In this document: positions 19,113 through 22,516 of the stretch, piece after piece
Position numbering within the stretch: the first letter of the stretch is position 1
Layout of the letters: every line of letters starts with the position of its first letter
DNA from: Mytilus galloprovincialis
Taxonomy: Eukaryota > Mollusca > Bivalvia > Mytilida > Mytilidae
DNA: 64,000 nucleotides
Direction of reading: 5' to 3'
Assembly (NCBI RefSeq): GCF_965363235.1
Contig: NC_134847.1
Location: 48,856,805 to 48,920,804 of the forward strand
Notes under the pieces: model-generated
The model's database searches: none
The model's input: only the letters and a program-made list of their open reading frames with translations
Told to the model about the DNA's origin: nothing
Program-made: the position numbers and the translations under genes

Positions 19113-19121
19113 TAATATTAA
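19113..19121. repeat. Target-site duplication of the SGNH/PHD element, left
   Basis: TAATATTAA precedes the inverted end. The identical 9-mer follows the other end at 22508-22516. Because it is AT-rich and partly palindromic, 8 bp cannot be excluded. Confidence 0.7.
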
Positions 19122-19395
19122 GGGTAACACGAATTACCGAATAACAGTGTTATTATCCGAATAACTCATGTAATTACCGAATAACTCTTCAAATATCAAT
19201 ATTAACACATTTAAGTGACTTTTAAACATATATTATTGAATAAAATTATATTAGAAGTGTATTTTATAACCTAAAAATAAAAAAAAAGTTGCAGGTAAGT
19301 TAATATTGATCATTATAAAATTATGGATATCGGTGTGTACTTCCAAGATGGCGACCAAGGAAAACGTAAGAAATGAAGAAAAGAAAGATTGCATA
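19122..19395 (+). repeat. Left terminal inverted repeat with promoter-like and exon-like signals
   Basis: The inward reading contains several copies of ATTACCGAATAAC near the tip. It then has a perfect splice donor CAG|GTAAGT (about 19291-19299), a CCAAGATGGCGACC start context with ATG at 19348-19350, and a second donor GTAAGA at 19366. The six codons MATKEN could be a first coding exon. The motif around the ATG matches the YY1 consensus core AAGATGGCG. Confidence 0.8.
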
Positions 19396-19634
19396 CAATC
19401 CCTCAACGTGTTCATCTTAGACCACCAAAGTGGAGCCCTCACGCCACGTCACGGCAATGAACAATGTGAGGGTGGGCATTTTTTAAAATAAAATATGGAA
19501 TAGTAAACTATTTAAATTAGTTTTTGTTTTAATTTTAGTTATTAAAAAAATATTATCTTTATCATATTTTTATATTTGTGATTTAGAAATGGATGTTAAC
19601 TAAGCCCCTTTAAATCTATAAAATTACAACTATT

Positions 19635-20025
19635 AAGATATCCTGCACAAGGCACGGGCTTATCTGTCATAGTCCGCGGAAATACTTTATTTATAATTTA
19701 TTGTAAAAAATTTATAACTACTATAAAGATATCCTGCACAAGGCACGGGCTTATCTGTCATAGTCCGCGGAAATACTTTATTTATAATTTATTGTAAAAA
19801 ATTTATAACTACTAAGATATCCTGCACAAGGCACGGGCTTATCTGTCATAGTCCGCGGAAATACTTTATTTAGAATTTATTGTAAAAAATTTATAACTAC
19901 TAAGATATCCTGCACAAGGCACGGGCTTATCTGTCATAGTCCGCGGAAATACTTTATTTAGAATTTATTGTAAAAAATTTATAACTACTAAGATATCCTG
20001 CACAAGGCACGGGCTTATCTGTCAT
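19635..20025. repeat. 88-bp tandem array, five copies
   Basis: Units beginning AAGATATCCTGCAC start at 19635, 19726, 19814, 19902 and 19990. Periods are 91, 88, 88 and 88, and the last unit is cut short. Each holds GGCACGGGCTTATC and a GTCCGCGG word, which makes it richer in G+C than the surroundings. It ends about 90 bp before the SGNH frame, so it could be an enhancer-like or transposase-binding subterminal array. Confidence 0.95.
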
Positions 20026-20116
20026 AAATACAAGTAGAATCTAATTTTGAAATAGATTAGTAGTTAGTTGGCAATCGTCAAGACTTATCTTATTCGAACG
20101 CACCTATACTTCATAT

Positions 20117-20746
20117 TTGCAAGACAATATTTGTTTACTGTGTTCTTCATATTTTACCGTAAATATGATGAACATTTTGGTACTTGGGCATAGCTATGTT
20201 GAGAATTTGAGACGTTTGTGTGAGAATAGGCGGAAACCCCATACCTGGGAGAACCCGTCTAATGCTCATGGGAAGGTCTCTGTTCAAATGCATGGTTATC
20301 CTGGTGCCACGTTCAAGAGATTAACTGAAGCAATTGAGGCTGGCTTGTTTGTGCATTATAGTCCACATGTGGTTATTTGTCAAATAGGTAGCAATGATTG
20401 TGACAGATATTCTTTTGATGAGACTGCCTTCAGATCAGACATGAATACTTTCATTTATGCTTGTCTTTCGAGAGGAGTATCAGTGGTATTCATGTCAGTT
20501 ATGAAGCGGTCCGGGCCTTGGTATTGCACTCCCGATGAGCATACAGTTCGCCGAGAGATAGTGAACAAAATGATGAAAAGCATAGCTTTTGAAAATCATT
20601 TTGTACATTATTTCAAGCCAACTAATGTTTATAGGGTGGAATACGAAGCTCGTGACGGGATACATTTCACTGAAGAGGGTTACCGTGCCTTCTTAGTAGC
20701 TTTGAGGAAGTCGGTCAGTTGGTTTATTAACAAAGTTAGGAAATGA
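20117..20746 (+). CDS. SGNH/GDSL-type hydrolase inside the TIR element
   Basis: A 209-codon frame (another start, Met17 or Met18, fits the domain edge better). The four SGNH blocks are visible. Block I is NILVLGHSYVENL with the nucleophile Ser26. Block II is GYPGAT with Gly63. Block III is IGSND with Asn93. Block V is DGIHFTEEGY with Asp180 and His183. All catalytic positions are kept, so it could act as an esterase or lipase. There is no signal peptide or membrane helix. Esterase domains of this kind are known in ORF1 of CR1-like LINEs and in some tyrosine-recombinase retroelements. Finding one inside a DNA-transposon-like inverted-repeat unit, with a PHD finger on the other strand, is unusual. 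It may be a captured gene or an accessory gene of the element. Confidence 0.85.
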   Translation: MQDNICLLCSSYFTVNMMNILVLGHSYVENLRRLCENRRKPHTWENPSNAHGKVSVQMHGYPGATFKRLTEAIEAGLFVHYSPHVVICQIGSNDCDRYSFDETAFRSDMNTFIYACLSRGVSVVFMSVMKRSGPWYCTPDEHTVRREIVNKMMKSIAFENHFVHYFKPTNVYRVEYEARDGIHFTEEGYRAFLVALRKSVSWFINKVRK

Positions 20747-21610
20747 ACTGAACTATTTTCTCAATGTCTACACGTGCAATGTATTTTGTTTAAGAAGAGG
20801 GTTTTTTTTAACATCGAATGACTAAAATAATCCAAAAGTTCTTACATATTTTATAATTTACAAATTAGAATTTGCCAGAAGAAAGCTTTTTTTAACAGGA
20901 AAACTCAAATTAACTTTATTAAAATATCTTTTTTTAATAATTTTTTATTTTAAATAATCAAAAATTATTGGTGAAACATTGAACATTATTACCCTTTGAC
21001 AGAAAACTAACATAGGATGTACATATTGTATATAGTTGTAAATATTTATTTGTGTTCTATTTTTCATTATTATAATTATTGGTGTTGGTAATGCAGCCTT
21101 GGTATACCAAGACAGTCACAAGCCTGTTTAATGCAGAGTGTCCATACTGTAATATAATTTCATTATCTCTTAATGATTAATTATGTAATGGGCACGTGTC
21201 AGTAAACAACAACCCAATTAACAATCTAACAGAAGTGTGAGGTAATGATTATTTTGTTTATTGGAACTAATTAACTCATTATCACTTTCAAATTATTCAA
21301 TGTATGAAAATAAATAAAAGTAGCAATAAAAAAAACGTAAATACTAACAATGACTAATTTTAGAAGAATATTAATTGAGTATTATTTTATTATTTTTAAT
21401 TCTGATTTTTTAGTAATTTAAATTAAGTAAATTAAATACATTTTAAATGAAATAAGAAATAAATGAAATATAATAAACTAGGTGAAAGATTGTCTTCTTT
21501 GAAATTAAATATTTTATTTTATTTTTCTTGTACCATGTTTCACTCTCTATTAATAATATAAAAAACCCAATTTCGCATTTGTATAGCTTATAATAAAAGG
21601 TATGTATGAA

Positions 21611-21856
21611 AATTACTTACCTTTCTAACGCCTTGGCCATGTCATACTTGTTGTCTGTAAAGCAACAGTCCTTACAAAGGAACTTTAGAGACACATCTGA
21701 CCAGGCCAATAACAATGCATCATCCATTGGGACACAAGCACTGTGAACCCAACGATCACAACTGCATTGAATGGTGCAATCAACACATTCTTCATCACAT
21801 TGAACACACGGATATAAAGCCATTTTGAAAATGGAAGACAGCACACATGTATTCAT
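21611..21856 (-). CDS. PHD-type zinc-finger exon inside the TIR element
   Basis: The minus-strand frame starts at ATG 21856 or, more naturally, at the internal ATG giving MALYPCVQC. Zinc ligands follow the C4HC3 order: CVQC, then CSC, then H in WVHSAC, then CKDC. The residues DRWVHSAC are typical of PHD fingers. The last codons (ALER) run into GAAAG|GTAAGT, a near-perfect splice donor at about 21618, so this is one exon of a spliced transcript. The downstream exon was not identified. It may be mostly untranslated. PHD fingers usually read histone H3 tails. In CR1-like LINEs a PHD domain accompanies an esterase domain in ORF1, the same pair seen here on opposite strands. Confidence 0.75.
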
Positions 21857-22233
21857 GGCTTTTTATACAAAATTAAAGTGACTTGTAAAAACATTTATAT
21901 TTGCCAATGAAAATCTTATATTTAGTTTTGAGAAAATTTTATTAGAATAAACATAAAAATCATCCATTCAGAAGCTTTGTTTTTATTAAAACAATCAATT
22001 ATAATAATTTTTTGATTAGATTTGAATTGAATATGTGAAAATTCTTAATTACATTTTATTTAATGTTGAGTAAATTGTTATGAAAAGTAATTAGTGATTG
22101 GAGTAATTGCATTGCTTTGATGTACTGGTTAAATTTTCAAATCCTTTCTGAAAAACAATTATTAGACAATTCTCTGTATATACAGTAAATTATTTAATAC
22201 TATATTTTCATAGCGTTTTCCTTTGAAGGCATA

Positions 22234-22507
22234 TATGCAATCTTTCTTTTCTTCATTTCTTACGTTTTCCTTGGTCGCCATCTTGGAAGTACACACCGAT
22301 ATCCATAATTTTATAATGACCAATATTAACTTACCTGCAACTTTTTTTTTATTTTTAGGTTATAAAATACACTTCTATTATAATTTTATTCAATAATATA
22401 TGTTTAAAAGTCACTTAAATGTGTTAATATTGATATTTGAAGAGTTATTCGGTAATTACATGAGTTATTCGGATAATAACACTGTTATTCGGTAATTCGA
22501 GGTACCG
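22234..22507 (-). repeat. Right terminal inverted repeat
   Basis: The reverse complement of 19122-19395, of the same 274-bp length, with the same splice donors, AAGATGGCG start context and MATKEN codons reading on the minus strand toward the PHD frame. Similarity stops sharply at GATTGCATA on both sides. Confidence 0.85.
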
Positions 22508-22516
22508 TAATATTAA
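22508..22516. repeat. Target-site duplication of the SGNH/PHD element, right
   Basis: TAATATTAA, identical to 19113-19121. Confidence 0.7.

What the first reader, a model, noticed from the sequence alone, without database searches (positions are those of the whole stretch)
19122..22507. Long-TIR DNA element carrying an SGNH hydrolase and a PHD finger on opposite strands
Seen directly: 274-bp inverted ends, TAATATTAA on both sides, an SGNH frame with all catalytic blocks (GHS, GSND, DGIHF) and a C4HC3 PHD exon, with no transposase. Known: esterase and PHD domains occur together in ORF1 of CR1-like LINEs. Inference: a DNA transposon (MULE-like by TSD and TIR length) has independently recruited the same domain pair, or transduplicated it. 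I know of no described element with this layout.
Basis: partly seen in the sequence, partly recalled or inferred. Interest (0 to 1): 0.85.

Follow-up and report, generated by a model that had tools for sequence, protein, structure and literature searches.

The report
Deleted MULE transposon with nested esterase
This stretch of a probable mussel genome is a shortened copy of a Mutator-type jumping gene; the enzyme gene and zinc finger in it are left over from a larger element whose transposase begins with that zinc finger and holds the enzyme gene, followed by a probable self-cutting RNA, on the opposite strand of an intron.

Summary
In detail: 19122-22507 is a 3,386-bp element with 274-bp inverted ends and a perfect 9-bp target duplication. 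All 16 complete copies tested have their own duplication of at least 9 bp at the same ends; a TIR core occurs 98 times. The transposase is missing by deletion. Two TIR-bounded copies, L010 and L067/L068, keep MULE transposase pieces on the PHD strand. Diverged copy L050/L052 reads TIR, minisatellite, MULE, OTU, NADAR, SGNH (opposite strand), PHD, TIR. Its PHD exon joins the OTU-MULE exon in frame; L051 and P0018 encode PHD-OTU-MULE as one protein (several scores below Pfam cut-offs). So PHD is the transposase N-terminus and SGNH a separate gene, antisense in its first intron. New: a twister-type ribozyme match (21085-21144) behind SGNH, below Rfam's cut-off, whose sequence recurs at 20 genomic places, all in or within 8 kb of parts of this family. 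Closest described kind: Rehavkus/MULE. Ribozyme activity and the esterase's role are inferred.

The parts
19113..19121 (.). left copy of 9-bp target-site duplication TAATATTAA
   Evidence: perfect direct repeat abutting the left end
19122..19395 (+). left terminal inverted repeat, 274 bp (GGGTAACACGAATTACCG...)
   Evidence: a 36-base TIR core with up to 2 mismatches occurs 98 times genome-wide, reversed-pattern control 0
19348..19367 (+). ATG followed by a GTAAG splice-donor-like site inside the TIR, mirrored in the right TIR; possible first exon or leader
   Evidence: sequence; inference only
19620..20026 (.). 88-bp minisatellite, 4.6 copies, on the side of the former transposase 3' end
   Evidence: also downstream of the MULE frame in L049 and L050
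20020..20026 (.). internal-deletion junction relative to L009: homology passes from the minisatellite side to the SGNH side within 7 shared bases; MULE, OTU and NADAR regions of long relatives are missing here
   Evidence: element positions 899-905 match both sides in L009; layout of L050
20168..20746 (+). SGNH/GDSL hydrolase gene, 192 aa, Ser-Asn-Asp-His catalytic residues present
21085..21144 (+). twister-P1 ribozyme match about 340 nt downstream of the SGNH stop on the same strand
   Evidence: 50 bits, E 4e-8 over the window; gathering score 67.2 not reached; same motif at 20 genomic places, all in or within 8 kb of parts of this family
21621..21856 (-). PHD-finger exon, N-terminal coding exon of the lost transposase, ending at a GAAAG|GTAAGT splice donor
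22234..22507 (-). right terminal inverted repeat (reading inward: CGGTACCTCGAATTACCG...)
22508..22516 (.). right copy of the target-site duplication TAATATTAA

Best explanation
The element is a non-autonomous, internally deleted copy of a Mutator-like (MULE, Rehavkus-like) cut-and-paste transposon family in a probably Mytilus genome. Shown by sequence, from several copies together (no single copy shows everything): the long relatives read TIR, minisatellite, MULE, OTU, NADAR on the minus strand, SGNH on the plus strand, PHD on the minus strand, TIR; in the window's own family a twister match follows SGNH. PHD, OTU protease and MULE DDE domain belong to one transposase, made in L050/L052 by splicing the PHD exon over an intron that houses the SGNH gene (antisense) and a NADAR frame (sense). 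The window copy lost MULE, OTU and NADAR but kept both ends, SGNH, twister and the PHD exon, so it can be moved only by a transposase supplied in trans. Inferred: the twister cuts the SGNH transcript in its 3' part before it runs antisense through the PHD exon and the right TIR, giving the SGNH mRNA a defined end and limiting double-stranded RNA with the transposase mRNA. Inferred: PHD reads histone tails to guide or regulate the transposase, OTU removes ubiquitin, and SGNH is an esterase that helps the element in a way not yet known.
For: 16 of 16 complete copies with at least 9-bp TSDs at constant ends. Of 40 scored TIR matches, 30 are 97-100% identical, implying recent spread. MULE pieces inside TIR-bounded copies of the same family: L010 (PF10551 8.3e-6, 26.6 bits, just below its cut-off 27.6; 113 of 119 residues identical to P0036) and L067/L068 (92% over 101 residues of P0036). 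L050/L052: layout and Pfam Transposase_mut 1.1e-9, MULE 9.8e-8, OTU 1.4e-6, NADAR 4.5e-18, all over cut-off, between 75%-identical TIRs, PHD remains at L052:75-339. In-frame GT-AG join reading ..KSLK-R-LQAVVG..; PHD, OTU and MULE in one frame in L051 and P0018. Twister motif at 20 places, reversed control 0: 19 of 20 within 8 kb of a PHD, SGNH or TIR match, PHD on the opposite strand in 16 of 16 and SGNH on the same strand in 11 of 11 where listed; the 20th lies between two TIR ends. Twister changes at 5 of 240 sites against 107 of 1708 in flanking non-coding DNA over four older copies, Fisher p 0.007. PHD dN/dS 0.17-0.30, L010 against L053, L038, L054, L055.
Against: No intact autonomous copy of the window's own subfamily was found among the scored matches (97 of 97 candidates; L049's MULE frame has no family TIR in the 10 kb fetched); the mobilising transposase is unknown. 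In L051 only OTU, and in P0018 none, of the PHD/OTU/MULE scores reach Pfam cut-offs. Only 2 of 39 SGNH rows are full length and open. SGNH shows no clear selection among near copies: all 8 differences from L009, L013 and L018 change the protein; dN/dS is 0.72 to L010, 0.41 to L025, 0.58 to L053; to L050 it is 0.114 but dS is saturated. PHD dS is undefined or saturated against L052, L056 and L057. The twister scores 50 bits, below the curated 67.2; minimum-energy folding does not recover the twister shape (z 0.03; pseudoknots are outside that method). No twister was found in L050, L052, L038 (half deleted) or L051, nor in L062, L063 and L064. The Fisher test treats related copies as independent. 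The L050 TSD is unresolved.
Confidence: 0.83

Rival explanations
1. Pack-MULE-like transduplication: SGNH and PHD are host gene pieces captured between MULE ends.
For: MULEs in plants capture gene pieces (PMC6431247, passages). Foreign inserts do occur in other copies: an insert with weakly NHL-like frames in L010 and a LINE-type frame in L009.
Against: SGNH and PHD sit in the same order and strands in the diverged L050/L052; PHD continues in frame into OTU-MULE; SGNH is a whole frame with catalytic residues invariant in six aligned sequences.
Confidence: 0.06
2. Independent recruitment of an SGNH+PHD pair, convergent with ORF1 of CR1 LINEs.
For: Both domains are present; CR1 ORF1 esterase and PHD are recalled, not checked here.
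Against: They are on opposite strands and in two genes; PHD is part of the transposase. SGNH-like frames also occur without PHD in this genome, e.g. L060 beside a tyrosine-recombinase frame (SGNH score there below cut-off).
Confidence: 0.04
3. The twister came in with another element (for example an RTE-type retrotransposon) and has no role here.
For: Twisters are common in this genome (53 matches listed, 11 over cut-off, 62 of 82207 candidates scored); L009 holds a second, different one; truncated twisters at RTE 5' ends are mentioned as in preparation in PMC7761336 (passages); none found in L050/L052.
Against: This variant was found only in or close to this family, opposite to PHD and on the SGNH strand, and is less changed than its flanks.
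Confidence: 0.4
4. SGNH and the twister are passengers; only TIRs and the PHD-side sequences matter for mobility in trans.
For: Several short copies lack most or all of SGNH yet have good ends and TSDs; the 47%-identity lineage L066 has PHD and an OTU-side frame (by eye; no Pfam match) about 2.9 kb apart with no SGNH row there. SGNH differences among near copies show no constraint.
Against: Catalytic blocks stay invariant in proteins of 62-71% identity from other sources.
Confidence: 0.3

Closest known systems
Rehavkus (sister group or early branch of MULEs; PMC6446971, section 6 part 1 and section 8 read)
   Same: 9-bp TSD, TIR of 26-400 bp, PHD finger in the transposase, minisatellite before the 3' TIR
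   Different: Reported there only from arthropods and annelids with one ORF; no OTU, SGNH, NADAR or ribozyme listed. Clade membership of the catalytic domain not tested (no Rehavkus sequence at hand).
MULE groups MuDR-6_HM (Cnidaria) and MULE-Cg (Mollusca) in PMC6446971 Table 1
   Same: MuDR-6_HM has an Ovarian Tumour (OTU) domain; MULE-Cg is molluscan with TIRs of 48 and 296 bp
   Different: No PHD, SGNH, NADAR or twister listed for them
Ginger1 and Mutator elements with OTU, Ulp1 and PHD (PMC2836005, passages)
   Same: Protease and PHD domains joined to a transposase
   Different: Ginger1 uses a Gypsy-type integrase with the extra domains at the C-terminus; here PHD and OTU precede a MULE domain
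Maize MuDR (recalled)
   Same: Two oppositely oriented genes between long TIRs that hold promoters, 9-bp TSD
   Different: mudrB is no esterase; no gene nested in a transposase intron; no ribozyme
GDSL/SGNH esterases of CR1 LINEs, Ngaro/DIRS elements (recalled) and bdelloid Terminons (PMC6431247, passages)
   Same: An SGNH hydrolase carried by a transposable element
   Different: Those are retroelements; this is a cut-and-paste DNA transposon
NADAR in Ectocarpus Gypsy elements and oyster Tx1 LINEs (PMC12477816, passages)
   Same: NADAR domain in a transposable element
   Different: There in Pol or ORF1 of retroelements; here a frame inside a MULE element

Membership tests
Mutator-like element (MULE) | 8-11-bp target-site duplication | tested here: met
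   16 of 16 complete copies, 9 bp (L021 reads as 10)
Mutator-like element (MULE) | MULE/Mutator DDE transposase in long members | tested here: met
   L050 PF00872 1.1e-9 and PF10551 9.8e-8; pieces in family copies L010 (below cut-off) and L067; absent from the window copy
Mutator-like element (MULE) | long TIRs | tested here: met
   274 bp
Rehavkus | PHD finger in the transposase | tested here: met
   L051 and P0018 one-frame PHD-OTU-MULE; in-frame splice in L050/L052; the PHD profile scores are below Pfam cut-offs
Rehavkus | minisatellite before the 3' TIR | tested here: met
   88-bp unit, 4.6 copies; downstream of the MULE frame in L049 and L050
Rehavkus | catalytic domain groups with Rehavkus | not testable with these tools
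Pack-MULE | interior is captured host gene DNA, no transposase-derived part | tested here: not met
   PHD exon derives from the transposase, SGNH is shared with the long relative
SGNH/GDSL hydrolase | GDS/GHS serine, GxND and DxxH blocks | tested here: met
   invariant in six aligned sequences; Pfam
twister ribozyme (type P1) | conserved core and stems with score over the Rfam cut-off | tested here: inconclusive
   full-length match, one P1 pair non-standard, 50 bits against cut-off 67.2, E 4e-8
twister ribozyme (type P1) | self-cleavage | not testable with these tools
   bench assay needed

The most novel reading that the evidence does not exclude
A DNA transposon whose accessory esterase gene lies antisense in the intron of its own transposase and uses a self-cleaving twister ribozyme as its transcript terminator, so that the two overlapping genes do not make double-stranded RNA.
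Probability: 0.4. Interest if true: 0.82.

Novelty: new variant of a known kind. Interest (0 to 1): 0.62.

Why it matters
It explains the puzzling esterase plus PHD pair as leftovers of a multi-gene MULE, and shows that the features listed for Rehavkus (PHD, minisatellite, 9-bp TSD) occur together in a probable mollusc, with OTU in the same transposase. SGNH and NADAR, reported for retroelements in the papers seen, then occur in a cut-and-paste element too. If the twister is active it gives a self-cleaving ribozyme a clear and testable job in a DNA transposon: ending a transcript that runs antisense to the transposase gene. Roles of genomic twisters are called largely speculative in PMC5408937 (passage).

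Tried and rejected
Rejected: host-gene capture of SGNH/PHD; an SGNH-PHD fusion; the idea that the family lacks a transposase. Tried without gain: TSD of L050 (unresolved); RNA minimum-energy folding; NADAR search of the genome (3 matches, one of them L050); four loci fetched to find diverged twisters, of which only L065 had one, identical to the window's. CR1 ORF1 was not compared.

Paper searches, all ten: SGNH hydrolase + DNA transposon + PHD finger (0); MULE, bivalve, transposase, TIR, esterase, four of five (9); SGNH + transposon + transposase + terminal inverted (2); NADAR + transposon (246, the 20 listed mostly off topic); Mutator-like + OTU + transposase + PHD (2); twister + ribozyme + transposon (19); twister ribozyme + Mytilus (1); NADAR domain + transposable element (1); three of self-cleaving ribozyme, DNA transposon, MULE, Mutator, twister (158, 20 listed); Rehavkus (8). 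Papers opened: PMC6446971 (passages, section 6 part 1, section 8), and passages only of PMC2836005, PMC6431247, PMC5408937, PMC7761336, PMC12477816, PMC13359780, PMC10294476; the rest seen as listings. I saw no description of this element there; subscription papers and Repbase are not held.

Limits and dropped rows: I entered 30 of 41 PHD rows, 19 of 39 SGNH rows and all 40 TIR rows (the weakest rows left out). One search scored 40 of 253 TIR candidates; one search scored 62 of 82207 twister candidates. Copies with only one end inside the fetched stretch were not used for TSDs.
Full report
What is in the window. The element spans 19122-22507. Its ends are a 274-bp inverted pair and it is flanked by TAATATTAA on both sides, abutting the ends exactly. 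Inside lie an 88-bp minisatellite (19620-20026, 4.6 copies), an SGNH hydrolase frame on the plus strand (20168-20746; Pfam Lipase_GDSL_2 3.3e-13), a twister-P1 ribozyme match on the plus strand (21085-21144; 50 bits, E 2e-9 in the local scan and 4e-8 over the window) and a PHD-finger frame on the minus strand (21617-21862) that ends at a GAAAG|GTAAGT splice donor.

Other copies. The window lies in an unnamed 1.385-Gb genome. Mytilus edulis records match its loci closely: P0032 is 100% identical over 88% of the L050 MULE frame, P0021 100% over 22% of the L051 frame, P0006 92% over 62% of SGNH. A Mytilus is therefore likely (inference). A search with one TIR gave 253 candidates; 40 were scored, 30 of them 97-100% identical. 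A 36-base TIR core occurs 98 times (49 on each strand, up to 2 mismatches), with none for the reversed pattern. I fetched 20 copies; the 14 with both ends inside the stretch, plus the window and L067/L068, give 16 of 16 with a direct duplication of at least 9 bp abutting both ends. Their lengths run from 1.7 to 9.3 kb. This is a real DNA-transposon family with recent spread, not a chance arrangement.

The missing transposase. L010 (5.8 kb, both TIRs, 9-bp TSD) holds a MULE-domain piece on the PHD strand between minisatellite and SGNH. L067/L068 (9.3 kb with the stretch L054 between them; both TIRs, TSD CTCACAAAC) holds the transposase C-terminus, 92% identical to P0036 over 101 residues, on the PHD strand next to the twister. 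P0036, a Mytilus coruscus protein with NADAR and a MULE domain (the latter below cut-off), matches the L010 piece at 113 of 119 residues, and its first 11 residues are in L009. The diverged copy L050/L052 has the whole order between 75%-identical TIRs: minisatellite, MULE frame of 510 aa, OTU frame of 425 aa, NADAR frame of 143 aa, SGNH on the other strand (frameshifted), PHD remains. The window copy is therefore an internal deletion that lost MULE, OTU and NADAR. Relative to L009 the junction lies in seven shared bases at 20020-20026. An intact autonomous copy of this subfamily was not found: all 97 candidates of the MULE search were scored, and the closest other MULE frame, L049, has no family TIR in the 10 kb fetched.

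PHD belongs to the transposase. In L051 one uninterrupted 995-aa frame carries PHD, OTU and MULE, as does P0018 (1062 aa); of these scores only OTU in L051 reaches its Pfam cut-off, so the assignment also leans on position and on the zinc-ligand spacing. In L050/L052 the PHD exon (..AAAAG|GTAGGC) and the OTU exon (..TTGTAG|GTTACAA) join in frame as ..KSLK-R-LQAVVG... P0018 reads on through the same place (..EKALERLSVLT..), and the window exon ends ..AKALER there. The window PHD is one Cys shorter than 15 of the 17 full-length rows, so its own PHD may not fold well.

SGNH is a nested gene. It lies on the opposite strand inside the first intron of the transposase gene in L050/L052. Four database proteins of 62-71% identity keep the catalytic blocks. 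The AlphaFold model is of moderate confidence (pLDDT 66) and matches GDSL-type structures: three designed scaffolds first, then bacterial GDSL hydrolases, E. coli TesA and PAF acetylhydrolase. In the genome only 2 of 39 matches are full length and open. Selection on SGNH is unclear: the 8 differences from L009, L013 and L018 all change the protein, dN/dS is 0.72, 0.41 and 0.58 to L010, L025 and L053, and 0.114 to L050 with saturated dS. For PHD (L010 as reference) dN/dS is 0.17-0.30 to four older copies and undefined or saturated to three more diverged ones. In a 47%-identity MULE lineage (L066) PHD and an OTU-side frame (by eye; no Pfam match) are about 2.9 kb apart with no SGNH row, so SGNH was gained in, or lost outside, this clade; one locus was looked at.

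Twister. The match covers the whole model with one non-standard pair in P1. Its score is below the curated cut-off, and minimum-energy folding does not give the twister shape. Twisters are frequent in this genome, but this variant (up to 3 mismatches) occurs at 20 places, with none for the reversed pattern. Nineteen are within 8 kb of a PHD, SGNH or TIR match and the last lies between two TIR ends. PHD is on the opposite strand in 16 of 16 and SGNH on the same strand in 11 of 11 cases where the entered rows have one nearby. Against four older copies (L053, L025, L026, L065) the twister changes at 5 of 240 sites and the flanking non-coding DNA at 107 of 1708 (Fisher p 0.007, not corrected for kinship). 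L050, L052 and L051 show none, L038 has lost half of it, and L062, L063 and L064 show none in the stretches fetched. I take it as native to the younger clade and probably maintained.

How it works, as far as can be said. TSDs and many copies show transposition through the TIRs; a MULE transposase supplied in trans is the inferred agent for the window copy. That PHD, OTU and MULE form one protein is shown by relatives and splice frame. The roles of PHD (chromatin reading), OTU (deubiquitination), SGNH (esterase) and NADAR follow from domain families only. The twister as terminator of the SGNH transcript, ahead of the PHD exon on the other strand, is an inference from position and strand.

Comparison. 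Table 1 and section 8 of PMC6446971 list for Rehavkus a 9-bp TSD, TIRs of 26-400 bp, a PHD finger and a minisatellite before the 3' TIR, in arthropods and annelids. These features are met here, in a probable mollusc; the phylogenetic test could not be run. OTU is listed there for MuDR-6_HM. PHD and protease domains in Ginger1 and Mutator transposases are in PMC2836005 (passages). SGNH and NADAR in retroelements are in PMC6431247 and PMC12477816 (passages). The nested SGNH gene and the twister are what sets this family apart from what I saw described.

Noticed in passing
L010:3160-5110: A second inverted-repeat element (ends GGGTCTGGATGGGG by eye, 8-9-bp duplication gtactaga) sits inside the MULE piece and carries two frames, one weakly NHL-like (below Pfam cut-off); it looks like another gene-carrying TIR element.
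   Followed up: partly
L009:1745-1803: A second, different twister-P1 match (55 bits) lies in a 1.1-kb segment of L009 that the window element lacks.
   Followed up: no
L009:4432-5883: LINE-type frame with RNase H domain inserted in this 7.8-kb copy.
   Followed up: partly
L060:1358-2995: A weakly SGNH-like frame directly downstream of a tyrosine-recombinase (phage integrase family) frame: perhaps another SGNH-carrying mobile element in this genome.
   Followed up: partly
L050:6921-7352: NADAR frame inside the transposase intron, on the transposase strand, with AATAAA at its stop codon; NADAR in a MULE element was not reported in the passages seen.
   Followed up: partly
G000 C6:30781051-30781500, C7:30874395-30874849, C8:9985228-9985657: TIR pairs of this family only about 0.4 kb apart: very short, MITE-like derivatives.
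   Followed up: no
G000 genome-wide: Twister-P1 ribozymes are frequent (53 listed, 11 over the curated cut-off), several identical in score and so perhaps carried by other repeats.
   Followed up: no
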